NCBI GenBank assembly: GCA_035647615.1
Contig: DASRND010000032.1
Location: 124,001 to 188,000, forward strand
Direction: 5' to 3'
Source: Bacteroidales bacterium
GTDB taxonomy: Bacteria; Bacteroidota; Bacteroidia; Bacteroidales; 4484-276
DNA length: 64,000 nt
The translations under genes were made by a program, and so were the position numbers. This document shows positions 4,925 through 18,153 of the stretch, in pieces (within the stretch, counting starts at the first letter, position 1; every line of letters starts with the position of its first letter). The notes beneath the pieces are model-generated. The model saw nothing but the letters and a program-made list of their open reading frames with translations. It ran no database searches and was not told the DNA's origin.

Positions 4925-5821
4925 TTAAAATTTCAATCCTTCGGTCATAATCCCAAACCGAACAACCTGAAGCATCTCATTGAAGTAGATATTGTAATAA
5001 TCCATGCCGTAATAAAAGTTGACAAAGAAGCCGATCTCTTCAAAGAAGCCCGGGTGCAGGTTGAAAGTGATATCCACCGTCAGCCGGTCGGAAGCGAATG
5101 TTTCCCAGTTGTCCACTTCGCCAAACATCCAGGAGGCTTTGGCAGTAACGGAAAGCTGGGATTTGTTATGGCGATCAGGTTTTTTTGCAAAAGGATTTTT
5201 ATACACCGACATGGCAACCTGCCATCGCAGGGGGCTGTAGCGATTCCTGAGTTCCGGAGCCGACCAGCCCTTGGGATGCATCTCTAAATGCGTGCTAAAA
5301 AATTGCCAGGCGTTGAGCTTTTTGCTGTAGCGGCTACGAATCGCGCCTGCCTGCAGATAGTTTGTCGAGAAATTCCCTGACTTTAAATTCACCACCTGAC
5401 CCGGCAGATAAAAGTCATCTTCCTGCCCGTTGGAATGGTGGGCTATCCGCCCGAAGAGGATGGTTCGCTCGTTATCCGGTTTTGTTGTGGGCGCATAATA
5501 AATCGTAATCTGCGGGATATAACTCGGCGTACGCACCGGGAAAGATTCCTCCTGATACATGCGGATGATGATCTGCGGCGTGATGACGCCCATCAACCGT
5601 GCGCTTTTGCTTTCGCGAATAATGAAGTCAGGCATAACGTTGGCCTCGAACCAGATTGGATCGATATTCCCGATATTAAATGGCAAGGTGATGTAGCTAT
5701 TGCCCTGATGAACGCCCGAAAAAGTGGAGAGATCGAATGCATACACATCCTCCGCCTGCTCCTGCGCTGCCACCCGAAGCAAAGGGAAAATTAACAAACC
5801 GATGATGACCCATATTTTCAT
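4925..5821 (-). CDS. Outer-membrane barrel with an OMPLA-like HxSNG motif
   Basis: The frame is open from 6058, but the first 79 codons look non-coding. The start at 5821 gives a proper signal peptide (MKIWVIIGLLIFPLLRVAAQ) and a 298-residue product. Many alternating hydrophobic strands end in FGIMTEGLKF, as in outer-membrane barrels. At residues 128-132 the sequence HHSNG, followed by FSTNY with Asn154, resembles the His-x-Ser-Asn-Gly plus SRSWNR region of outer-membrane phospholipase A, where His142, Ser144 and Asn156 form the active site. The spacing to the Asn is about 12 residues longer here. Phospholipase activity is therefore a hypothesis. It lies 266 bp after the neighbouring barrel gene, so it may have its own promoter. 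Confidence 0.7.
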   Translation of the reverse strand: MKIWVIIGLLIFPLLRVAAQEQAEDVYAFDLSTFSGVHQGNSYITLPFNIGNIDPIWFEANVMPDFIIRESKSARLMGVITPQIIIRMYQEESFPVRTPSYIPQITIYYAPTTKPDNERTILFGRIAHHSNGQEDDFYLPGQVVNLKSGNFSTNYLQAGAIRSRYSKKLNAWQFFSTHLEMHPKGWSAPELRNRYSPLRWQVAMSVYKNPFAKKPDRHNKSQLSVTAKASWMFGEVDNWETFASDRLTVDITFNLHPGFFEEIGFFVNFYYGMDYYNIYFNEMLQVVRFGIMTEGLKF

Positions 5822-6087
5822 TGTAATTATGTTGAACACGTCTTTCAAAAACAGAAATTTCCAATAAGAATTTTCAATGCCCCATCCCGGACCCTTCTTT
5901 TCCAACTGGCGGAAAGGCGGCTCTTTTTCAAAACAAAAATGCGAAAACCAAAGCATCGCGCTTCGTTTAAACAACCCTACCGCCTCGCAGAAGTGCTCCA
6001 TTCTCCAATTAAAGAGGGGTCGGGGGTGAGGCGAAAAATGAAGCAATCCGCACCGCAATTATTCAAATATTGAACAACTACCAAATG

Positions 6088-6687
6088 TCAACGGTACAAG
6101 GCAATTCCAAATCCCAGCTCGATAATTTCTGATAACGGCAGCGAGCTGTTGCCAACTTTGGTTGCCAGATACAATCCGCGGGTGCCCACCCTTGCATACA
6201 AAGCAATGCCCGACGCGGGTACCTTCGACCGCAGCCAGGGTGTTTTTATTTCACCACCCACAAAAATTCCTGCCGTACGTCCCGGCGACCACCAATAATA
6301 TTGCGACGGGTATCGCGACGGGAGTTTTATCCAGTATTCGTCGCCCATGGTGTGGTGGATAAACCATCCGAAATTGAGCGGCAGCAGTTGATAATTTCCC
6401 CGCAAAGGGATTTTAATCAGTTTTGCCGTGAATTGTAAACTCACGCTGTGCAGCGTTTTGGTGTGCAGTTGCGCCGGAATATAGCCATAGAAAAACGTTA
6501 CGTCCAGGCGATCGTTAATAAAAGCGTAGCCCACTCCTGCCGACAAAAACCCGATGCCACCAGCGTATTGCAATTTTACATAATCCGGGAGCAGCAGGTC
6601 GGCTTTCGGCGACAGCGTCTGTGCGTCGGTCGCTGTAAACAGCGCCAATCCAAATAGCAGAAACATCAGATGTTTAAAAGGCCGCAT
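6088..6687 (-). CDS. Small outer-membrane barrel protein, family not recognised
   Basis: A 199-residue protein with a signal peptide ending TATDAQ at about residue 23. Short amphipathic strands follow, rich in Tyr and Trp, and it ends IELGFGIALYR. Such features suggest an eight-stranded outer-membrane barrel. No enzyme motif was recognised. Its start overlaps the end of the metallophosphoesterase gene by 14 bp, so translation is likely coupled. The gene probably belongs to the long minus-strand transcript that begins at the TolC-fusion gene. Confidence 0.65.
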   Translation of the reverse strand: MRPFKHLMFLLFGLALFTATDAQTLSPKADLLLPDYVKLQYAGGIGFLSAGVGYAFINDRLDVTFFYGYIPAQLHTKTLHSVSLQFTAKLIKIPLRGNYQLLPLNFGWFIHHTMGDEYWIKLPSRYPSQYYWWSPGRTAGIFVGGEIKTPWLRSKVPASGIALYARVGTRGLYLATKVGNSSLPLSEIIELGFGIALYR

Positions 6688-7516
6688 TGTCGATTAGTAT
6701 TTGGTTGTCGATGATTTTTATGATTGTCGTCTTCCGGTGTTCGACGCCAAACACATTCACGAACGGGATGCTGTCGGCCATCGGGAAATATACCTCATGA
6801 TGGTGCTGATGCCCATGCACCAGCATAACGACATTTTTGTTTTGAGCGATTGTCGCGTAAAATTCGTTTATCAGATTTGAATCGAAATCGCCATCATCGG
6901 GCGGCACATGGCAAATGATTACAGCTTTATCAAAATTGTTGGAAGGCTGTAAACGCTCTGCAAGCCAGGCAAGGTCGGGCACTTGCTGGTTAAAGGCAAA
7001 TTCACGGCTGTTGGTGTTCAAAAAGATAAACCGGATGCGCTGATAAACGAAGCTGAAATCCAATGCGCCAAACATCACCTCGTAAGCGTCTTTGCCATTG
7101 CTCACCAAATCGTGGTTGCCAATGGCCACCAGGTAAGGAACTTTTAATTTAGACAAATAGTCGTTGCCCCACAGATACTGTTTTGGCAAACCAAAGTCTG
7201 CGATATCGCCCACATGAAATACAAAATCAATTCGGGAATCGCTGTTTACTTTCTCAACAAAATCGTGCAGCTCATCAAAGTAGTTGTGCGTGTCGCCGGT
7301 AAATGCAATGGTGATGGTGTCGGTGGCAGCCTTGTTTTTTAACCGATCAATATTTTTTCGATTCACATCGGTATTTGCATCATCAAAATCGATGAGGTAG
7401 GGAGAGTAGTCAAAAAGATCGCTGCACGAGGAGGTCAGCATCAGGCAGCCAAGGGCAGCCGCGATAATTACCAGCTTCCTGATTTGAACCTTCCCGGATG
7501 TTTCCCAATTCAACAT
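6674..7516 (-). CDS. Calcineurin-like metallophosphoesterase lipoprotein
   Basis: This 280-residue protein carries the complete metallophosphoesterase motif set: GDTHN (about 74-78), GDIADFG (103-109), GNHD (133-136), HVPPDD and GHQHH near residue 235. The signal peptide ends in a lipobox with Cys31 (LTSSC), placing it in the envelope. The fold uses two metal ions to cleave phosphate mono- or diesters; the substrate is unknown. It sits 24 bp after the RND pump gene and overlaps the next gene by 14 bp, so it seems to be part of the efflux operon, an unusual association. Confidence 0.88.
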   Translation of the reverse strand: MLNWETSGKVQIRKLVIIAAALGCLMLTSSCSDLFDYSPYLIDFDDANTDVNRKNIDRLKNKAATDTITIAFTGDTHNYFDELHDFVEKVNSDSRIDFVFHVGDIADFGLPKQYLWGNDYLSKLKVPYLVAIGNHDLVSNGKDAYEVMFGALDFSFVYQRIRFIFLNTNSREFAFNQQVPDLAWLAERLQPSNNFDKAVIICHVPPDDGDFDSNLINEFYATIAQNKNVVMLVHGHQHHHEVYFPMADSIPFVNVFGVEHRKTTIIKIIDNQILIDNAAF

Positions 7517-7540: not shown

Positions 7541-10500
7541 TTAGCTATCAGCGCTCCAACATTTTTTATTAAAATCATAATTTTTAAAAGAGACTTTAAA
7601 AAACAGACGATAAACCACCGGCACGAAAAACAGAGTGATGATAGTTGCGAAGAAAAGCCCGAATATGATGGCCAGCGTTAGCGGTTCCCAGAGCAGTCCG
7701 CCGCCAAAGAGCAGCGGCAACATGCCCAGTGAGGTGGTGAGGGTGGTGAGCAATATCGGCCTGAACCGGTTGTGCGCCGCCAAAAGGATGGCATCGCGCC
7801 GGTCCACGTCGGGGTTCTCGGCAATCTCCACGTCGATGCGGTCGATGAGGATAATGGCATTGTTTACCACTATCCCGGCCAGGGCAATGATGCCCAGCAC
7901 GCCAAAGAAACTCACGAACGAGCCGCCAATAAACCAGCCGGCTATCGCTCCGATCATGCCCAGCGGAATGGCCAGAATAATGATGGTGGCTTTGCGTATG
8001 GAGTTGAACTGGAGCACCAGCAAAATCATGATAAGGAAAAATGCCAGCGGCAGGCGTGAAAATATGGCGCCGAGGTTTTCATTGGTGTCTTCATCTTCGC
8101 CACCAAATACGTAATCGTAGCCATAATCCCAGGAGGCTTTTTGTTCCTTCATCCACGGGCCGATCTCTTCAAAAACATCCGCTGCATTGTAGCCCGGTTG
8201 CAGATAAGCACCTACGGTCATGGTGCGTAAAAGATCTTTGCGGATATATTTGGAAAACTGCCAATCTACCCGCACATCAGCCACCTGCGACAGCGTTACA
8301 TTTTGTCCGGTGGCCGCCGACCAGATGTTGTAGGCTTCCACTGATGCGATATCGTGCTCATCACTATTGCCACTTTTCATAAAAATGGGGATGCGCTCGT
8401 CGGTGTCGCGGAAGTCGTCGATCTTCATTCCTGAGAGGCCGGCATGAAGCGCCATGGCTATCTCCATGTTGGTGAGGCCGGCACGTTTGGCTTTAAAAGG
8501 ATCGATGTCCACAATTAGTTTTTTGGTTTTCGGGCCCCAGTCGTCGGTAATGTTTTTGGCTCCCCTGGTGGTCACGAGTTTTGTTTTCACCGTTTCGGCT
8601 ATAGCTGCTAACCGTTCGGGGTCGTTTCCCGAGATGCGTATTTCGACCGGCGTGCCTGAAGCGCCGGCACCAGTAAGTCGGTTTACACGGATGTCGGCAT
8701 CGGGGATGTGATTGATACAAAAGCTGTCCACTTTGGCAATAATATAATCGTTGTCGCGGTCGCCGGTGGTGTTGAGCAGCAGATGCGCATAGTTGGAGTT
8801 GGCCTCATTTTTAAAATATCCCAAATCGTAAGGTTCGGGGCCTTCGCCAATAAATGATGAGAAATCCAATACTCCGGGTTCATCTGTTTTTTCAGGGTCC
8901 ACCAGAAGCTCATCCAGGATAAAAATGCCAATATCTGCCACTGCCATTTCTGTATATCCGATTTGTGTGCCTTGCGGAAATTTGATGTCCACGGTCACTA
9001 AGTTGCGGTCGCTGTCGGGCACCAGTTTAAATGGCAGCAATTGCATAGAAAGCAGCGCGGCCACAAATAGCGCGGCAATCATTCCCAAAAAAGGATAAGG
9101 ATTTTTTAGTACGCGAAACAGCACGCCGTTGTACCATAAGTTTATGTTTCTCATATTCCGGTCGACCGCATTCTCCTTTTTCCTCATATTTTTCGAGTTA
9201 TCTTTTACAATAGCCATAGCAAGCAATGGGATCAGGGTAAATGTTAGAAACCACGAGCTGAGCAGCGTAAGACTCACTACCCAAAACAGGGGCGACGAAA
9301 TTTCGCCCATAGGTGTTTCGGCCAGTGCAAAGGGCAAAAAAGCCGAGGAAGTGGTGAGCGTCGAAATGAGCAGCGGAACTAACAAAACTTTGCAGGAGTA
9401 GATCATAGCTTCGAACTTGCCCATGCCCTTGTCCATGCTCACCAAGATAGATTCTGACATAACAATTCCGTTATCTACCAGAAGACCTAGCGAAATAATC
9501 AGCGCTGCCAGCGATACTTTATTTAATCCCAAATCGAGTACCCCCAGGAAAAAGAAGGTAAAAAGAATGACCATGGGAAGCAGCGCTGCCACCAGCATGC
9601 CCGTGCGGAAGCCCAGAAAGAAAAGCATCACAGCCAACACAATAAGGATACTCTGTACCAGGTTTTTCAGAAAATCGGTGACCTGTCTGTTGACCACCTG
9701 ATCCTGTGAGGCAGAACGCACCACCTCTATTCCCAACGGAAGGTTGCTGTTGATGCGAGGAATGGCTTTGTCAACCTGCTGGCCCAGGCGCACGATGTTG
9801 GCTCCATCCTTCAACGATATAAACAGGGCGATAGCCGGTTGCCCGTTGATTTTTACAATCTTCTCGCGTGGGCTTACATAGTCGCGGTAAATACGGGTAG
9901 TAATATCTTCCAGAAATACTACCGTCCCTGACGAGGTGGGTATCAGGATTTTTTTCAGGTCGTCCAGCGATTTGAAATTACCCGACGGTTCCAGATCTAT
10001 CCGCTTGCATCCCACATTGATTTCGCCCCCCGGGAAAAGAATGTTGGTGGCCGAAAGAATGTTTTTTAGCTGCATTGCATTCAGGCCATAGCGCGAGAGT
10101 TGTTTGTCGTCAAATTCGATAAAAATGCGTTCGTCCTGCACTCCTCCGTATTTTATTTTTGCTGCATCGGGTAGCAGGAGCAGCTCATCACGAATGTTTT
10201 TGGCGTAATCTTCCAGCTGGTTGTAGGGCACGCCATCGCCCGTTACGCCGAGGATGATGCCGAACACCGTGCCGATATCTTCATCTTTTACCACCGGCCC
10301 ATAAATACCTGGCGGGAGCTGCGGTTTGAGGTCTTCCACTTTGTTGCGCAGGCGTTCCCACACCGGCTGAAGTTCTTTGTTGCTTACCTGCACCACCAGC
10401 TCAATGGTAATCACCGAGAGCCCGGCGCGCGACTCGCTGCTGATGGTTTTTATTTCAGACATCTCACGTATCACCTCTTCGAGTGGATCGGTGACCAGTG

Positions 10501-10681
10501 CTTCCACTTCCAGTGGATCGGCGCCGGGATATTTGGTAACCACTGTGGCCACGCGGATGGTATAGGGCGGCATGCTGTCGCGCTCCAGCTTGAAGTAGTT
10601 GTAGATGCCGATGATGCCAACAATCAGAAAGATGGTGATGGTAATACGGTTATTATTTAATGTGATTTTTGTAAGGTTCAT
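7541..10681 (-). CDS. RND efflux inner-membrane transporter
   Basis: A 1046-residue protein of the AcrB/HAE1-like resistance-nodulation-division family. It has twelve predicted membrane segments in two repeats, with large periplasmic loops after TM1 and TM7. It should pump compounds from the periplasm or inner membrane through a TolC channel using the proton gradient. In TM4 the usual Asp-Asp pair reads LLVDNGIV (Asp403, Asn404). In TM10 the position of AcrB Lys940 is Asn940 within VVNNAIILID. So only part of the canonical AcrB proton relay is kept, as in some other RND subgroups. It lies between the adaptor gene (21 bp upstream) and the metallophosphoesterase gene. Confidence 0.95.
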   Translation of the reverse strand: MNLTKITLNNNRITITIFLIVGIIGIYNYFKLERDSMPPYTIRVATVVTKYPGADPLEVEALVTDPLEEVIREMSEIKTISSESRAGLSVITIELVVQVSNKELQPVWERLRNKVEDLKPQLPPGIYGPVVKDEDIGTVFGIILGVTGDGVPYNQLEDYAKNIRDELLLLPDAAKIKYGGVQDERIFIEFDDKQLSRYGLNAMQLKNILSATNILFPGGEINVGCKRIDLEPSGNFKSLDDLKKILIPTSSGTVVFLEDITTRIYRDYVSPREKIVKINGQPAIALFISLKDGANIVRLGQQVDKAIPRINSNLPLGIEVVRSASQDQVVNRQVTDFLKNLVQSILIVLAVMLFFLGFRTGMLVAALLPMVILFTFFFLGVLDLGLNKVSLAALIISLGLLVDNGIVMSESILVSMDKGMGKFEAMIYSCKVLLVPLLISTLTTSSAFLPFALAETPMGEISSPLFWVVSLTLLSSWFLTFTLIPLLAMAIVKDNSKNMRKKENAVDRNMRNINLWYNGVLFRVLKNPYPFLGMIAALFVAALLSMQLLPFKLVPDSDRNLVTVDIKFPQGTQIGYTEMAVADIGIFILDELLVDPEKTDEPGVLDFSSFIGEGPEPYDLGYFKNEANSNYAHLLLNTTGDRDNDYIIAKVDSFCINHIPDADIRVNRLTGAGASGTPVEIRISGNDPERLAAIAETVKTKLVTTRGAKNITDDWGPKTKKLIVDIDPFKAKRAGLTNMEIAMALHAGLSGMKIDDFRDTDERIPIFMKSGNSDEHDIASVEAYNIWSAATGQNVTLSQVADVRVDWQFSKYIRKDLLRTMTVGAYLQPGYNAADVFEEIGPWMKEQKASWDYGYDYVFGGEDEDTNENLGAIFSRLPLAFFLIMILLVLQFNSIRKATIIILAIPLGMIGAIAGWFIGGSFVSFFGVLGIIALAGIVVNNAIILIDRIDVEIAENPDVDRRDAILLAAHNRFRPILLTTLTTSLGMLPLLFGGGLLWEPLTLAIIFGLFFATIITLFFVPVVYRLFFKVSFKNYDFNKKCWSADS

Positions 10682-10702: not shown

Positions 10703-11908
10703 TTAAAAATCATTATCGTCGAGTAGTTTTACTTTTCTGCCTTCATACAAAAACCGGATGCCGGCTGTAATGACAATGTCACCGGTGTTGAGTCCTTCGT
10801 TAATCTCATAACCTGCCGGACTTAGTTCGCCCGGCTTCATATTTCGCCTGGTGGCAATGTAAAAGCCTTCTTCGTTAGTTGGCTGAGCCAGATATACGAA
10901 GTCACCATTTTGGTCGTGACTTACTGCATCGGGGCTAATTATGATAGAAGTTTGACGGTTCTTGTCTTTCAGCGGAATGTTTACCGTGCCGGTCATTCCT
11001 GAAAATACCTGTGCAGAAGTTTCCCCGCTCAATTGTACAATTACAGGATAGGATGAAGAACCCGGGGAGCCACTACTCACCTCGGAAATTTTTCCGGGGA
11101 ATGATTTGCCGGGAAGGGTGGAGAATTGTACTGTAACTTCCATTCCCTGGCTTATCCGGCCTATTATGTTTTCGGGTACTGCCGTTTGCACCTCGATGGT
11201 TTGGATGGACGAAAATGCCACCACCGGATGGCCTGCGCCAGCCATTTCGTTTTCCTTGGCAAAAATAGCCGAAACCGTTCCTGTGTAGGGAGCATCGAGG
11301 CGGGTATAATCCAATTGTTTTTGGGCTGCCTTTACCTGTTCGCTTGCAGTTTCGGCCATTGCCTGTGCTGATTCGTATTGCGCTTTTGCCTTTTCATAAT
11401 CATTTAGCGAGGCGTTGTTGCCGGCATACAGGTTTTCTATCCGCAGAAAAGCTGATTTAGCAGTTGTTTGCTGTACCTCAGCATTTTTTAGCGAAGCCAC
11501 CGCTTTGTTGTAGTTGATGCGGTAATCCGTAAAATCCAGGCGGGCAATCTGTTTTCCTTTTTTTACGGTATCGCCCAGTTGCACTGCTATTTCCTGTATA
11601 GTGCCGCCAACTTTAAAACTGAGTTTGGCCTCGTCCCGGGGTTGTGCCACTCCTGAGAAAGAGCGGGTTTCGGTGATGGCATTTCTATCCACTTTCTGAA
11701 AATAGACCGGGCGGATAGCCTCTTCGTTACTCTCTTTGTGAGCGCAGCCCGCCGCAAAAGCCACCATCAATGCGATGAAAAACGATCTTTTTATCTGTCT
11801 ATTAATACCTATTCCCGCCAGCCTGCCTGCTTCGATGTGCGGCAGAAATGCCTGAATGAAATTTATTTCATTTTTACGGGTGTTCAAATGTTTGGATGAA
11901 TATTTCAT
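10703..11908 (-). CDS. RND efflux periplasmic adaptor lipoprotein
   Basis: A 401-residue membrane fusion protein that would link the RND pump to the TolC-like channel. A lipobox (AFAAGC) lies unusually far in, near residue 55, so the true start is probably later than the ATG at 11908; no other ATG is well placed, and a rare start codon cannot be excluded. After it come a lipoyl-like half (FKVGGTIQEIAVQLGDTVKKG), an alpha-helical hairpin (about 130-200), the second lipoyl half (DAPYTGTVSAIFA), then beta-barrel and membrane-proximal domains. It starts one base after the TolC-fusion gene ends and is cotranscribed with it. Confidence 0.92.
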   Translation of the reverse strand: MKYSSKHLNTRKNEINFIQAFLPHIEAGRLAGIGINRQIKRSFFIALMVAFAAGCAHKESNEEAIRPVYFQKVDRNAITETRSFSGVAQPRDEAKLSFKVGGTIQEIAVQLGDTVKKGKQIARLDFTDYRINYNKAVASLKNAEVQQTTAKSAFLRIENLYAGNNASLNDYEKAKAQYESAQAMAETASEQVKAAQKQLDYTRLDAPYTGTVSAIFAKENEMAGAGHPVVAFSSIQTIEVQTAVPENIIGRISQGMEVTVQFSTLPGKSFPGKISEVSSGSPGSSSYPVIVQLSGETSAQVFSGMTGTVNIPLKDKNRQTSIIISPDAVSHDQNGDFVYLAQPTNEEGFYIATRRNMKPGELSPAGYEINEGLNTGDIVITAGIRFLYEGRKVKLLDDNDF

Positions 11909-11909
11909 T

Positions 11910-14264
11910 TTAGTATTCTTTGTTTAAATTATTAAATAAGCGGTTGGAATATTCCTGTTGTTCTGTTTTATCAGTTAAAAAACCAAACCTTCCCTGCATG
12001 CGCTCGGTTTTGATGTAGTCAAGGATGTATTGATAATAAGCACTTGCCGCCATGTATTTTGAACGTGTCATTACATTTTGGGCATCGATAAGCTGTACTA
12101 CAGAAGTCACGCCCTGGGCATACGCATCCTGAACTATTTTGTAATTATCCTGGGCAGCGCGTGCAGCCTGTTGTGCAAGCTCCAGTTCTTTGTACGAAGC
12201 TTTTAGAAGCTGTACGTTTGAGCGGAGGCCTTTCTCGATCTTGTTGAGAAGGTCGTCCTTCTGCCAACCTATTTTTTCCTGTTCGATGGTGGTGCGTTGC
12301 ACTTCTGCCCTTTTGCGTCCACCCTCAAACAGTGGAATGCTCATCTTCACTCCGAGATGCCAGGTGATGTCGTCGGGTGGCGGCGGAACGGGCAGGCCGG
12401 AAATTGGCCGGGTGCCCTCGCGAACAAAAGCCTGGTCGGCCTGGCCAAACAAAGCCACCTCGGGAACAAACAACTGCCTGATCTGCATCGACTTTTTTCG
12501 ATCCACTATTTCGCCAGCGGTAAGAACCTGCTGTAGTTCCGGCGACCAGGTGTGCATCTCGCTGATGAGGAAGCTGGCGTATTTTTCCGTCAAATCCGGA
12601 TTGCTGAAATAGAGTGCCAAAATGTTTTGATCGGGCACAATGGTTCTATCGATTTCGGAAGAGTCGGGGGTGGCGATGGTGTTACCAATGGGATGGTTTA
12701 GTAATTCATTAAGCTGGTACATAGCAGCTCTATAGCCGGCCTGGGCATCGTTCAGCTCCATTTTGCTAATGCTTACTTCGGTAGTCCAGCGGTTTACATC
12801 TGAAATGCCGCCTTCGCCACTTTGCTCCTTTGCCTTTGCTAATTCAAGGTTTTGTAGAGAGGCATATACATTTTCATTTTTAATTTGAAGATTATTCCTG
12901 TTAAAGAGCAACGAAATGTATGCACCCGAAACATCCGAAACAATGTCGAGCATGGTTTGCCGGCTTGCGTGCTGCTCGTATTCGGCGGCCAGTTTTTTAA
13001 GCGCGATATTACCAAATGCAGCCTCTGACCAGATTACTTGCCGTAGCGAGGCGGAGCCGGAAAGTGTAAATTCGCCACGCTGCCCCATAGAAACATCCAC
13101 AAGGTTCTGGCTCAGTTGCAATGCGGAAGCTGAGACCTCTACCTGCGGCAAGACGTTGGCTTTGGCAATGCGTACTTCTTTTTGCGCCATCAGCAAATCC
13201 TGGTCGGTAATTTTTCCCTGAAGGTTATTCTCCAGCGCCTGCGCAATGGCCTGCCGCAACTCCATCGTTTCGCCCGGCATTTTCTCGACGTTTATAAGCA
13301 CTGCATTTTCCAACTGCTGCCAATTTACCGGGAATTTTCCTGTTTGTCGCAGGCTTTCCATATTTACAACGGGAGTGCGTTTGCTGCCGTTGCGGCTTAC
13401 CGGTATTTCAGACAAGTTGGTGCCCTCGCTCACTTTTAATACCCGCAAAGCCACCTCGCGCGCCATTTGCAAAAGGGTGAATTGTGGTGTGAAAGTTACG
13501 CTTGCACCGAGTGTCAAATCACTGGGGCCGCTCACCGCAAGCGATGGAACTTGCCGCTGGTTAAGCTCCGCAAAAAGTGCTGCTATTTCCACAGGTGTGT
13601 TTTGTATCATCGGAAGAACAAAGGCAGCATCAACGCTTGCAGGCATTTCCGAAAGGATATTCTCCATGCCGGCTTCCACCGGAATAAAGGAAACATTAAA
13701 GCCCTGATCGTGCTGTGATAAAAACTGCCGGAGCGGCTGGAAGTTGGTATAAAGCGGTTCGGGAACGAGTACGGCAAGATGGCTAAACCCAAACATGTCG
13801 TAAAAAGCACGCATATCGTTTTTCAGCTTGATCATCGAGGGGGTGTAGGAAAAGTTCGTAATACCGCTGCTGCTGTCGGCCTGCAGGGTCAAGCCTTGAA
13901 GCTCGCGGTCGAGCGAAGTAGCAGCAATCACCGGTTTGGGGTAGGAGGGCAGATGCGCGGCAGCATCGGAAGAGAGGAAGCCCAGGGTAATAACAATGTC
14001 CGTTTCAGGATCGTCGAGAAGTTCCCGAAGGTTTTCGTTTATCTTGTCTGCCTGCCATTCGGCACTTAGCTCCCTGAACTTAACTCCGCCACGCGCTTGT
14101 GCCAGTGCTTCAATTTCTGATTTTATCTCCTGCGCCAACGTTTCAAACTCCCCGGTAGCGGCATCTTTGCTGATCCCGATTTTTATCGGCACCTGTGCTT
14201 GCGTAGCTGTCCGGGCAACAAGAAGTGCCAGCACCATGTATAATAAAAAGCTGATTTTATTCAT
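11910..14264 (-). CDS. TolC-family channel fused to an N-terminal substrate-binding-protein-like domain
   Basis: At 784 residues this is far longer than a usual TolC protein (about 420-490). A signal peptide (residues 1-23) is followed by about 300 residues that look like a type I periplasmic binding protein of the ABC_sub_bind kind. Strand-turn patterns include IKIGISKD, DIVITLGFLSSDAAAHL, KPVIAATSLD, HLAVLVPEPLY and VDAAFVLPM. From about residue 340 the sequence is an outer-membrane efflux protein: MELRQAIAQALENNLQG, long coiled-coil helices, and AYAQGVTSVVQLIDAQN near the end. It is the first gene of the RND operon. The binding domain may sense or deliver substrate at the periplasmic end of the channel; that is inference. 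Confidence 0.88.
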   Translation of the reverse strand: MNKISFLLYMVLALLVARTATQAQVPIKIGISKDAATGEFETLAQEIKSEIEALAQARGGVKFRELSAEWQADKINENLRELLDDPETDIVITLGFLSSDAAAHLPSYPKPVIAATSLDRELQGLTLQADSSSGITNFSYTPSMIKLKNDMRAFYDMFGFSHLAVLVPEPLYTNFQPLRQFLSQHDQGFNVSFIPVEAGMENILSEMPASVDAAFVLPMIQNTPVEIAALFAELNQRQVPSLAVSGPSDLTLGASVTFTPQFTLLQMAREVALRVLKVSEGTNLSEIPVSRNGSKRTPVVNMESLRQTGKFPVNWQQLENAVLINVEKMPGETMELRQAIAQALENNLQGKITDQDLLMAQKEVRIAKANVLPQVEVSASALQLSQNLVDVSMGQRGEFTLSGSASLRQVIWSEAAFGNIALKKLAAEYEQHASRQTMLDIVSDVSGAYISLLFNRNNLQIKNENVYASLQNLELAKAKEQSGEGGISDVNRWTTEVSISKMELNDAQAGYRAAMYQLNELLNHPIGNTIATPDSSEIDRTIVPDQNILALYFSNPDLTEKYASFLISEMHTWSPELQQVLTAGEIVDRKKSMQIRQLFVPEVALFGQADQAFVREGTRPISGLPVPPPPDDITWHLGVKMSIPLFEGGRKRAEVQRTTIEQEKIGWQKDDLLNKIEKGLRSNVQLLKASYKELELAQQAARAAQDNYKIVQDAYAQGVTSVVQLIDAQNVMTRSKYMAASAYYQYILDYIKTERMQGRFGFLTDKTEQQEYSNRLFNNLNKEY

Positions 14265-15525: not shown

Positions 15526-15553
15526 TTGCCATAGTGAATGTTCACTAACTTTG
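15526..15553 (+). promoter_or_regulatory. Promoter of the cyclase/PycTM operon
   Basis: TTG at 15526-15528, a 17-bp spacer and TAACTTTG at 15546-15553 fit the Bacteroidota TTG-N17-20-TAnnTTTG promoter. Transcription would begin near 15560. This rules out a start at the in-frame TTG at 15551 and supports the ATG at 15578. Confidence 0.7.
15533..15546. promoter_or_regulatory. TetR-type operator in the cyclase operon promoter
   Basis: AGTGAATGTTCACT is a palindrome with six-base perfect arms around a TG centre. It fills the spacer between the -33 and -7 elements and overlaps the first base of the -7 box. Near-copies lie at 14335-14348 and 27014-27027. Confidence 0.7.
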
Positions 15554-15577
15554 TATCGAATTTCAAATTTATTTGCA

Positions 15578-16912
15578 ATGCAGGGTCAGGAAAATATGCT
15601 GGAAGATCAATTTAATGCCGAGATGTTTAAAAGTGAGCGGCTGCGGGCGCTTATTCTCGTCGGACTGCTTTCGCTAGAAGCTGTGGTTCTAATTATTAAT
15701 TATTCGCTTTACCAGGAGGCGTACCTGCAGATATTCGAGAGTTACATTGCCATTTACGCCATACTTATTTTTACCGTTTTGCTCATTGTTTACGAAGTGT
15801 TGATTCATTATCTGTTGTTAAAAATGCGCAAACGGTTTTTTTTAAACCCCAGAGTTTTTGGTTATTTCAATGCATTTTCAGAAATCACTCTGCTCAGTTT
15901 TTTATTGATTTTTATAGTTGAGTACACAAGGCAGACAACGATTTTGCAAACTCCGGCCACACTCACCTATTTTATTTTCATTGTGCTTTCTACCCTGCGG
16001 TTCAGTTTCAAATTATCGGTGTTCACGGGTACGCTTGCAGCGCTTGAATTTGTCGGGATTTCCATTTATTATTCAACGTATCGTGCCGGAGGCTCCATAC
16101 CGGAGGCGGAGGCTCTCAGTTTGACAGGGATGCAATATTTCGGGCAGGGCATCATCATGCTTATCACGGGTATTGCCGCCGGCTTTGTTGCCGATTTGAT
16201 TAAAAGAAAGGAGCAAAAATCACTACAGGTGTTAAATGAGAAAAATGAAATTATCGACCTTTTTGGCCAACAAATTTCTCAGCAAATTGCCAACAGCATT
16301 CTTGAGAAAAAGGATGAACTGGCCGGGATAAAGAAAAATGTTAGTGTCATGTTTCTTGACATCCGAAATTTCACTCCTTTCGTCGAGAATCATCAGCCTG
16401 AGGAGGTAGTAACCTATCTCAACGACTTGTTTTGTTTTATGATACGAATCGTTGAAGAACACCATGGGGTCATCAATCAATTTGTGGGCGATGGCTTTAT
16501 GGCTACTTTCGGTGCACCGGTTTCAAGAGGAAACACAGCCAGCGATGCAGTTTTAGCAGCCACCGAAATTATTGCTGAACTGAAAAGCGAACTGGCCACC
16601 GGCAATTTGCCCGATACTCGTGTGGGCATAGGCATACACTATGGCGAAGCAATTATCGGAAATATTGGTTCCTCGTTGCGTAAGCAATACTCCATTACCG
16701 GCAACGTGGTGATTATCGCTTCACGCATCGAGCAGCTCAACAAAAAGCACCACTCGCAGTTGCTTATTTCTGAGGAGGTATTCGATCGGCTGAACGAGGC
16801 CGAAAAGAAAAACTTTGATTCAGCAGAGCTCACAATGGTAAAAGGAAGTAACAAGCTTTTTTCCATTTACAGGTATCTCGAAAATAATTACGAAGAACAT
16901 AAATCTAAATAG
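15578..16912 (+). CDS. Membrane-bound class III nucleotidyl cyclase (Pycsar-cyclase-like context)
   Basis: The frame is open from 15551, but the promoter makes ATG 15578 the better start (444 residues; Met at 15596 is an alternative). Six membrane segments (about 23-43, 56-80, 97-116, 127-147, 148-166, 187-207) precede a linker helix and a class III cyclase domain (about 250-430). Metal-binding Asp261 (FLDIRNFT) and Asp305 (VGDGF) are present, as is the transition-state Arg383. The residues that choose the base in adenylate cyclases are changed: the usual Lys is Gln301, the usual Asp is Asn376, and the usual catalytic Asn is Ile379. The product nucleotide therefore cannot be assumed to be cAMP. 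The effector-like gene at 16915 begins two bases after the stop. Confidence 0.9.
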   Translation: MQGQENMLEDQFNAEMFKSERLRALILVGLLSLEAVVLIINYSLYQEAYLQIFESYIAIYAILIFTVLLIVYEVLIHYLLLKMRKRFFLNPRVFGYFNAFSEITLLSFLLIFIVEYTRQTTILQTPATLTYFIFIVLSTLRFSFKLSVFTGTLAALEFVGISIYYSTYRAGGSIPEAEALSLTGMQYFGQGIIMLITGIAAGFVADLIKRKEQKSLQVLNEKNEIIDLFGQQISQQIANSILEKKDELAGIKKNVSVMFLDIRNFTPFVENHQPEEVVTYLNDLFCFMIRIVEEHHGVINQFVGDGFMATFGAPVSRGNTASDAVLAATEIIAELKSELATGNLPDTRVGIGIHYGEAIIGNIGSSLRKQYSITGNVVIIASRIEQLNKKHHSQLLISEEVFDRLNEAEKKNFDSAELTMVKGSNKLFSIYRYLENNYEEHKSK

Positions 16913-16914
16913 TC

Positions 16915-18153
16915 ATGAAAATAGACGCATCGCTATTATTAGAAATCGAGGAGTTTGTAAGCGAACTCCTGATTAAAAAAACACCGCCTTATCTTGTGTA
17001 TCATAATATTGATCACACGCGTGAGGTGGTGAAAAACGCGGAGCTTATTGCAAAACATGAAAATTTCAACGATGATGAACTAAGCATTCTTAAAGCAGCC
17101 GCCTGGTTTCACGACACCGGCTACACCGTGAAATATTTGCAACATGAGGAAGAGAGCGTGAAAATTGCCTCCGTATTTTTAAAAAAGGAACAAGTGACTG
17201 CGGATCTTATCGATCTGGTGGCCGATTGTATCAGGGCAACCATCTCTACCCAAAAGCCGGCTAATAAAATTGAAAAAGCTTTGCGCGATGCCGATTTCAT
17301 GCACCTGGGAAAAGAAAACTATCCCGAATATGCTGATCGGATACGCAAAGAATGGAACGATGCCGGCGTGCGGACAATAAAAAAGCGCGAATTTGAAGAG
17401 GAATCGGTAAAGATGTTCCTTGACCATAGTTTTTATACAAACTATGGGCGCAATGAACTATCGGAGACCAAGGCCAGGAATCTTGAAGCCCTGCAAGCAT
17501 CGGTGAAGAAACGTGGCGAAAAGGAAAAGAAAAAGGAAAAGGAACAGGAAAAGGAACAGGGAAAAGAACAGGGAAAAGAACAGGAAAAGAAAAAGAAAAA
17601 GAAGGAGAAAAAGGTAATTGGCAAAAATACCTATTCACGTGGTGCAGACTCCATGCTCAGACTTACCGCCCGCACCCAGATAAATCTAAGCTCTATTGCC
17701 GACAACAAATCCAATATCCTGATTTCGCTCAACGGCATCATTATTTCTCTGGGGCTGGCCGCATTGGTAAGCAAATTTAAGGAAGACCCGGCCATCATCT
17801 TCCCCACCATTATTTTTCTTGTTTTCAGTTTGTCAACCATAGTGTTGGCTATCTTGTCTACGCGCCCCCACATTTCTAAAGGGAAGTTTACCCAGGAGGA
17901 TATTGAACACAAAAAGGTAAATCTTCTTTTTTTCGGGAATTTCTACAACATGCCTTTGCCGGAATATGAAGAGGCTCTGAATGCCATGATCGACGACGAT
18001 AAGTATCTTTACACCGCCATGATCAAGGATCAGTACCTTCTGGGGAAAGTGTTGGCCAAAAAGTACAAGCTCCTGCGTTGGGCCTACAATATATTTATGG
18101 TGGGAATAGTAGTTTCTGTCATCGCTTTTCTGCTGGTTTTTTTACCGGTTTAA
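16915..18153 (+). CDS. HD-domain protein with C-terminal Pycsar-effector-like (PycTM/DUF5706) membrane domain
   Basis: A 412-residue protein in three parts. Residues 20-180 form an HD phosphohydrolase domain with His34, His66-Asp67 (WFHDTG) and Asp125/Asp127 as likely metal ligands. Residues 198-235 are a Lys/Glu/Gln linker encoded by repeating AAGGAA/ACAGGG-type units. Residues 245-412 match the PycTM (DUF5706) effector domain: TQINLSSIADNKSNILISLNG, membrane segments at about 266-286 and 294-315, a cytoplasmic stretch ending KDQYLLGKVLAKKYKLL, and a last segment at 392-411. In Pycsar defence, PycTM effectors are triggered by cCMP or cUMP and damage the inner membrane. The pairing with an adjacent cyclase supports such a signal here. 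The HD domain might degrade the signal or a related nucleotide; that is inference. Confidence 0.88.
   Translation: MKIDASLLLEIEEFVSELLIKKTPPYLVYHNIDHTREVVKNAELIAKHENFNDDELSILKAAAWFHDTGYTVKYLQHEEESVKIASVFLKKEQVTADLIDLVADCIRATISTQKPANKIEKALRDADFMHLGKENYPEYADRIRKEWNDAGVRTIKKREFEEESVKMFLDHSFYTNYGRNELSETKARNLEALQASVKKRGEKEKKKEKEQEKEQGKEQGKEQEKKKKKKEKKVIGKNTYSRGADSMLRLTARTQINLSSIADNKSNILISLNGIIISLGLAALVSKFKEDPAIIFPTIIFLVFSLSTIVLAILSTRPHISKGKFTQEDIEHKKVNLLFFGNFYNMPLPEYEEALNAMIDDDKYLYTAMIKDQYLLGKVLAKKYKLLRWAYNIFMVGIVVSVIAFLLVFLPV
17515..17613 (+). repeat. Purine-only low-complexity repeat inside the HD-PycTM gene
   Basis: About 100 bases of imperfect AAGGAA, AAAGAA and CAGGGA units encode a Lys/Glu/Gln linker. 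Copies of GGGAAAAGAACA are exact direct repeats. In-frame units of six or twelve bases could expand or contract without breaking the frame. Confidence 0.7.

What the first reader, a model, noticed from the sequence alone, without database searches (positions are those of the whole stretch)
11910..14264. A TolC-like channel with a built-in periplasmic binding protein domain
About 300 residues with a substrate-binding-protein pattern precede a complete outer-membrane efflux domain in one 784-residue protein. This might bring substrate to the channel or sense drugs. Such fusions appear rare and are of mechanistic interest for efflux.
Basis: partly seen in the sequence, partly recalled or inferred. 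Interest (0 to 1): 0.62.

Follow-up and report, generated by a model that had tools for sequence, protein, structure and literature searches.

The report
TolC channel with fused SBP-fold collar
This gene encodes the outer-membrane exit channel of a drug-type efflux pump, and every close relative of that channel that could be examined over its full length carries a permanently attached copy of a nutrient-binding-protein fold, whose usual binding signature has been lost, so it probably works as a docking or gating collar rather than as a substrate carrier.

Summary
The fusion is real. It lies on the minus strand: 784 aa, SBP fold 25-325, eight-residue linker, TolC-type channel 334-765. P0001's own N-terminus has no Pfam hit, but homologues hit PF04392 above its cut-off, profile searches reach the crystallised aromatic-amino-acid SBPs, and AlphaFold matches both halves strongly (Z 24.9 and 32). 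It is not an assembly join: full-length homologues occur in 18 of 395 genomes of its phylum, in a Kangiella MAG, and on complete plasmids of Sulfuricurvum and Cetobacterium, almost always as fusion-MFP-RND operons. In the sampled phylum the channel half and SBP half pick out the same 18 genomes; no close unfused version of either half was found. Fused channels form one clade, and the two domain trees agree, so one old fusion is likely. I favour an accessory collar for docking or gating; lineage-specific ligand sensing stays open, as the window's own clade shows a weak opposite trend. No description was found in the searched literature.

The parts
11910..14264 (-). SBP-fold/TolC fusion gene, 784 aa
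   Evidence: full-length homologues
14193..14264 (-). N-terminal signal peptide, residues 1-24 (inferred: hydrophobic helix, TQAQ end, no lipobox, no Cys in the protein)
   Evidence: sequence
13290..14192 (-). SBP-fold domain related to ABC_sub_bind (PF04392), residues 25-325
13266..13289 (-). short linker, residues 326-333
   Evidence: domain borders
11955..13265 (-). TolC-type outer-membrane channel domain (two PF02321 repeats), residues 334-770
10703..11908 (-). periplasmic adaptor (MFP, RND_mfp family); likely a lipoprotein starting at an internal ATG, since homologues match from about residue 35
7541..10681 (-). RND permease (ACR_tran, 1046 aa)

Best explanation
Shown by computation: the protein is the outer-membrane factor (OMF) of a tripartite RND efflux pump, encoded before its MFP and RND permease. 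It belongs to a distinct OMF subfamily that carries an N-terminal two-lobed SBP-fold domain descended from the PF04392 family. Inferred: the channel forms the usual TolC trimer, so three SBP domains would surround it at the equatorial belt in the periplasm, in the place where other OMFs have an N-terminal lipid anchor or, in E. coli TolC, the YbjP lipoprotein. Substrate goes from RND and MFP through the sealed lumen and does not pass through the SBP cleft. The SBP fold was co-opted as a permanent accessory collar that helps the channel dock, assemble or open with its adaptor, or holds it at the cell-wall level. Carrying substrate is not its main job.
For: Both folds are matched. In 395 genomes the strong hits with the channel half alone and with the SBP half alone come from the same 18 genomes and all are fused, one being split by contig ends. 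Fused channels form one clade (support 100) apart from 8 unfused channels. SBP and channel trees agree (Spearman 0.75, 0/2000 permutations). Both halves are under purifying selection, dN/dS 0.16 and 0.08. Fusion-MFP-RND order is found in 28 of 29 fetched loci. Cleft signature residues T96, D219, N220 and D142 of free-standing SBPs are lost. Cleft loops are less conserved than the rest in the fused set (p 0.002) but more conserved in free-standing SBPs (p 0.006). The best conserved fusion residues are R269 and N301, and both are recognisable in the shrunken Cetobacterium version. The pump type can change to an ABC-2 exporter while the SBP stays. Equatorial attachment and the YbjP precedent: PMC8277102, PMC13082787.
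Against: In the window's own clade (10 sequences) the cleft loops tend to be more conserved than the rest (p 0.055). D34, S99, D119 and R269 could form a new polar pocket. No trimer model or coordinates were available, so the collar position is inferred from the short linker and TolC anatomy. The cleft test uses loop positions taken from DSSP, not measured distances, and is significant only with loop lengths of 6-8.
Confidence: 0.5

Rival explanations
1. The SBP domain is a working ligand sensor or capture site with a new, lineage-specific specificity. Binding closes the two lobes next to the equatorial belt and so favours adaptor docking or channel opening, or raises the local concentration of a pump substrate.
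For: The two-lobed SBP fold is intact. In the window's clade the cleft loops tend to be conserved. Fusion-specific polar residues D34, S99, D119 and R269 are kept. A TetR gene sits next to the operon in Mariniphaga and Sulfuricurvum, which fits inducible efflux of small molecules.
Against: The PF04392 cleft signature is gone. Family-wide the cleft loops are the less conserved part. The Cetobacterium domain is shortened. There is no direct path from cleft to lumen (inferred).
Confidence: 0.33
2. The SBP domain is a vestige: an old fusion that is folded but has no important role beyond secretion or folding.
For: It evolves faster than the channel half (dN/dS 0.16 against 0.08) and its cleft is degenerate.
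Against: It was never lost in 18 of 18 genomes, it is under purifying selection, and it is kept across several phyla.
Confidence: 0.13
3. The protein is the binding component of an ABC importer that happens to be joined to an outer-membrane channel, working in uptake.
For: PF04392 proteins are normally importer SBPs, for example in tyrosine and tryptophan uptake (PMC6816091, PMC9382623).
Against: The neighbours are MFP and RND genes, or an MFP and ABC-2 exporter. The amino-acid-type cleft residues are absent.
Confidence: 0.03
4. Assembly or frameshift artefact joining two genes.
For: None.
Against: The junction is conserved in many independent genomes and a complete plasmid, with one open frame.
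Confidence: 0.01

Closest known systems
TolC / OprM-type outer membrane factors (PF02321; TCDB 1.B.17)
   Same: Two OEP repeats, TolC fold over residues 331-765 (Z 32), encoded with MFP and RND permease.
   Different: About 300 extra N-terminal residues forming an SBP fold; no lipobox.
PF04392 aromatic-amino-acid SBPs: CD0873 (6hni), VC_1101 (3lkv), TrpX/SP1069 (3lft)
   Same: Two-lobed class I SBP fold over residues 25-325, Z 23-25; statistically sure homology.
   Different: Signature cleft residues (T-P-x-A-Q loop, S-D, D-N) are lost; fused to an export channel; no importer genes beside it.
YbjP bound to E. coli TolC (9v52, 9tg4; PMC13082787, PMC13095208)
   Same: Accessory periplasmic module on the outside of TolC near the equatorial domain, 3:3 stoichiometry (inferred for ours).
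   Different: YbjP is a separate lipoprotein; here the module is an SBP fold, covalently fused and not lipidated.
Sulfuricurvum kujiense WP_041667226.1 (plasmid pSULKU01), annotated 'ABC transporter substrate binding protein'
   Same: Full-length homologue, same two domains (27% identity over 1-776).
   Different: Encoded with an HlyD protein and an ABC-2 exporter (RbbA-type), not an RND permease.

Membership tests
Outer membrane factor (TolC family, PF02321) | Two OEP repeats above the curated cut-off | tested here: met
   139 bits against 22, two stretches
Outer membrane factor (TolC family, PF02321) | TolC fold: long helices plus four strands per protomer | tested here: met
   Z 32.0, 412 residues aligned to the 9a2x TolC model; Z 31.1 to 7ng9
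Outer membrane factor (TolC family, PF02321) | Encoded with periplasmic adaptor and inner-membrane pump | tested here: met
   MFP and RND genes follow in the window and in 28 of 29 loci
Outer membrane factor (TolC family, PF02321) | Homotrimer in the outer membrane | not testable with these tools
   only single-chain models can be made
PF04392 ABC_sub_bind proteins | This protein itself reaches the Pfam cut-off | tested here: not met
   no match at E<=0.1; homologues do: 8 of 19 match at E<=1, best 4.5e-10, Sulfuricurvum 38.6 bits
PF04392 ABC_sub_bind proteins | Two-lobed fold of that family | tested here: met
   Z 24.9 to 3lkv; profile-profile E 1.4e-17
PF04392 ABC_sub_bind proteins | Conserved cleft residues of ligand-binding members | tested here: not met
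   T96, P97, Q100, D142/D143 and D-N at 219-221 mostly replaced
PF04392 ABC_sub_bind proteins | Genetic link to an ABC import permease and ATPase | tested here: not met
   neighbours are MFP and RND genes, or an ABC-2 exporter
PF04392 ABC_sub_bind proteins | Binds a small ligand | not testable with these tools
   needs purified domain
Tripartite RND efflux system | RND permease of the ACR_tran family and RND_mfp adaptor | tested here: met
   PF00873 1.4e-152; TIGR01730 9e-71

The most novel reading that the evidence does not exclude
An obligate, covalently attached SBP collar makes this OMF subfamily a ligand-responsive exit channel: each lineage has retuned the cleft, and ligand-driven lobe closure at the equatorial belt controls adaptor docking or opening from the outer-membrane side, independently of the inner pump type.
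Probability: 0.25. Interest if true: 0.78.

Novelty: new variant of a known kind. Interest (0 to 1): 0.5.

Why it matters
OMFs are usually treated as passive exit ducts whose opening is driven from the inner membrane. A subfamily that permanently carries a periplasmic clamshell domain, kept across several phyla and with both RND and ABC-2 pumps, would be a natural test of whether the outer-membrane end can sense, dock or gate by itself. It is also an example of an importer protein fold co-opted into an exporter, and it explains why a database record of such a protein is misnamed 'ABC transporter substrate binding protein'.

Tried and rejected
Assembly error: rejected. Importer component: rejected on neighbours and lost cleft residues. 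Using the full 19-row alignment for the genome-contig scan failed for lack of conserved stretches, so a 6-row alignment was used. Phospholipase A neighbour as a shared feature: an outer-membrane phospholipase-like gene follows the operon in the window, L022 and L026, and a phospholipase A gene lies near the Sulfuricurvum copy, but that one is not recognisably related by BLAST, and the other loci lack it. Lipoprotein status: no lipobox near the N-terminus of P0001 or most homologues. The single-domain Rhodothermus SBP (5z6v/6k1x) resembles residues 144-326 (Z 18), but the profile match is not significant (E about 0.2). Nine literature searches found no description of this fusion; only the open-licence part of PubMed Central is held, so subscription papers may have been missed.

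Full report
WHAT IS THERE. The 784-aa ORF is at exactly 11910-14264, on the minus strand. It is the first gene of a minus-strand cluster: fusion, MFP adaptor (10703-11908) and RND permease (7541-10681), then a calcineurin-like phosphoesterase (6674-7516), an unknown gene (6088-6687) and a weakly phospholipase-A1-like gene (4925-6058). The window lies in a 3.7 Mb genome that holds one such fusion; its nearest relatives are uncultured Bacteroidales.

DOMAINS. PF02321 matches twice, E 2e-40. It does match 8 of 19 homologues (best 4.5e-10), the Sulfuricurvum homologue well above the cut-off (38.6 against 25.9 bits) and the Kangiella one just above it (26.0). A profile of the N-terminal halves finds 3lkv, 3lft and 6hni (1.7e-13, 7.9e-8, 9.1e-7) and matches free-standing PF04392 proteins at E 1.4e-17. 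AlphaFold on the 19-row alignment gives pLDDT 84. Residues 331-765 match TolC at Z 32.0, and residues 25-325 match 3lkv at Z 24.9, 3lft at 23.4 and 6hni at 23.2.

NOT AN ARTEFACT, AND HOW COMMON. Full-length homologues were found in 18 of 395 genomes (13 of 171 genera) sampled across the window's phylum, in 3 of 59 near relatives, the window's own genome included, in named genomes (Gaoshiqia sediminis, Mariniphaga sediminis, Ignavibacteria, a Balneola MAG, a Rhodothermia MAG, a Kangiella MAG), and on plasmids of Sulfuricurvum kujiense (27% identity over 1-776) and Cetobacterium somerae (20% over 1-770). In a sample of 299 genomes around the Kangiella MAG only that MAG itself had one.

OBLIGATE PAIR. 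Searching the same 395 genomes with the SBP half alone gave 18 strong hits, all inside long fused frames except one cut by a contig end, plus three weak hits to other PF04392 proteins. Searching with the channel half alone gave the same 18 genomes, again all fused except the one whose frame starts at a contig edge. No close unfused version of either half was seen. The profiles were built largely from these sequences, so the test says that no unfused relative comes near them; it does not say that none exists. In a tree of 30 fused and 8 unfused channels the fused ones are one clade (support 100, one change). The unfused set is small and on long branches. SBP and channel distances agree (Spearman 0.75, none of 2000 permutations as high). 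One old fusion, then joint inheritance, is the simplest reading. Both halves are under purifying selection between the window and its closest relative: dN/dS 0.16 for the SBP and 0.08 for the channel.

PARTNERS. In 28 of 29 fetched loci an MFP and at least part of an RND permease follow the fusion in the same order. The exception, L047, stands alone beside a GntR/UTRA regulator. In Cetobacterium the partners are again MFP and RND. In Sulfuricurvum the fusion is followed by an HlyD protein, an RbbA-type ATPase/ABC-2 protein and an ABC-2 permease, with TetR genes on both sides. The SBP thus belongs to the channel, not to one kind of pump.

DOES THE SBP STILL BIND? CD0873, VC_1101 and SP1069 bind tyrosine, phenylalanine and tryptophan with a shared way of holding the amino and acid groups (PMC6816091). 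Of 59 columns identical in all three, the fused family keeps mostly structural ones (P111, G134, N137, G253, G281, N301) and has lost the T-P-x-A-Q loop at 96-100, the S-D at 142-143 and the D-N at about 219-221. That these are ligand contacts is inferred; the paper's text names only the side-chain-selecting residues. As a control, 19 free-standing PF04392 SBPs from the same phylum were aligned with the fused set. In them T96 and D219 are invariant and the loops after the strands (the cleft side in this fold) are more conserved than the rest (0.624 against 0.568, p 0.006); in the fused set the same loops are less conserved (0.387 against 0.444, p 0.002). The effect depends on loop length, and it reverses weakly in the window's own clade (0.69 against 0.64, p 0.055). 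So the ancestral ligand is very probably gone, and a new, lineage-specific ligand is not excluded. The best conserved residues are R269 and N301 (26 of 26), and both can be recognised in the shortened Cetobacterium domain.

HOW IT MOST LIKELY WORKS. Model residue 334 aligns with the first residue of mature TolC, after a linker of about eight residues. In OMFs this N-terminal part belongs to the equatorial belt around the outside of the helical tube, from which the lipid anchor of OprM also starts (PMC8277102). In E. coli TolC a separate lipoprotein, YbjP, sits between this belt and the outer membrane (PMC13082787). The fusion has no lipobox and no cysteine at all. I therefore infer three SBP domains around the waist of the trimer, outside the sealed lumen. 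Delivery of substrate into the channel through the SBP is unlikely on geometry; docking, wall or membrane placement, or gating is more likely. This step is inference, at about even confidence.

NOVELTY. Nine full-text searches found no account of the architecture. A survey of outer-membrane pores says fusions to other domains are rare and, in the passages read, does not mention this one (PMC4827864). Individual proteins are in public databases under other names, such as 'ABC transporter substrate binding protein' or 'TolC family protein'. I rate it a new variant of a known kind: a distinct OMF subfamily, with a mechanism still to be tested.

Noticed in passing
window 4925-7516, minus strand; L022 15051-17418: A calcineurin-like phosphoesterase, an unknown 199-aa protein and a weakly phospholipase-A1-like protein follow the pump genes and keep this order in the closest relative (L022); L026 has the phospholipase-like gene directly after the RND gene.
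   Followed up: partly
L074 6624-6944 (Gaoshiqia sediminis, G456:C136:62644-62847): An orphan 107-aa frame matches residues 6-73 of the fusion (38%), about 40 kb from the full-length copy in the same contig: probably the remnant of a second copy.
   Followed up: partly
L029 and L030 (Mariniphaga sediminis): Two seemingly identical copies of the whole operon lie on two scaffolds of one genome: a recent duplication or an assembly duplicate.
   Followed up: no
L064 (Sulfuricurvum kujiense plasmid): The fused channel is paired with an RbbA-type ATPase/ABC-2 exporter instead of an RND permease, an example of inner-pump exchange.
   Followed up: partly
L065, L066 (Cetobacterium somerae plasmids): The fusobacterial versions have a shortened N-terminal domain that Pfam does not recognise; a profile comparison of L065 still links it (probability 96.8).
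   Followed up: partly
window 7541-10681, minus strand: By eye the RND permease has LLVDNGIV and GIVVNNAI where AcrB has the D407-D408 and K940 relay residues, so the second Asp and the Lys seem to be Asn (comparison from memory).
   Followed up: no
G196:C5, G216:C58, G267:C59 (L076 holds part of G216): Long frames (945-1271 aa) with two or three tandem PF04392 matches each, apparently multi-SBP proteins of another kind.
   Followed up: no
window 15551-16912, plus strand: A protein with a class III adenylate/guanylate cyclase domain behind a predicted membrane part; the next ORF (16915-18153) looks by eye like an HD-type protein.
   Followed up: no
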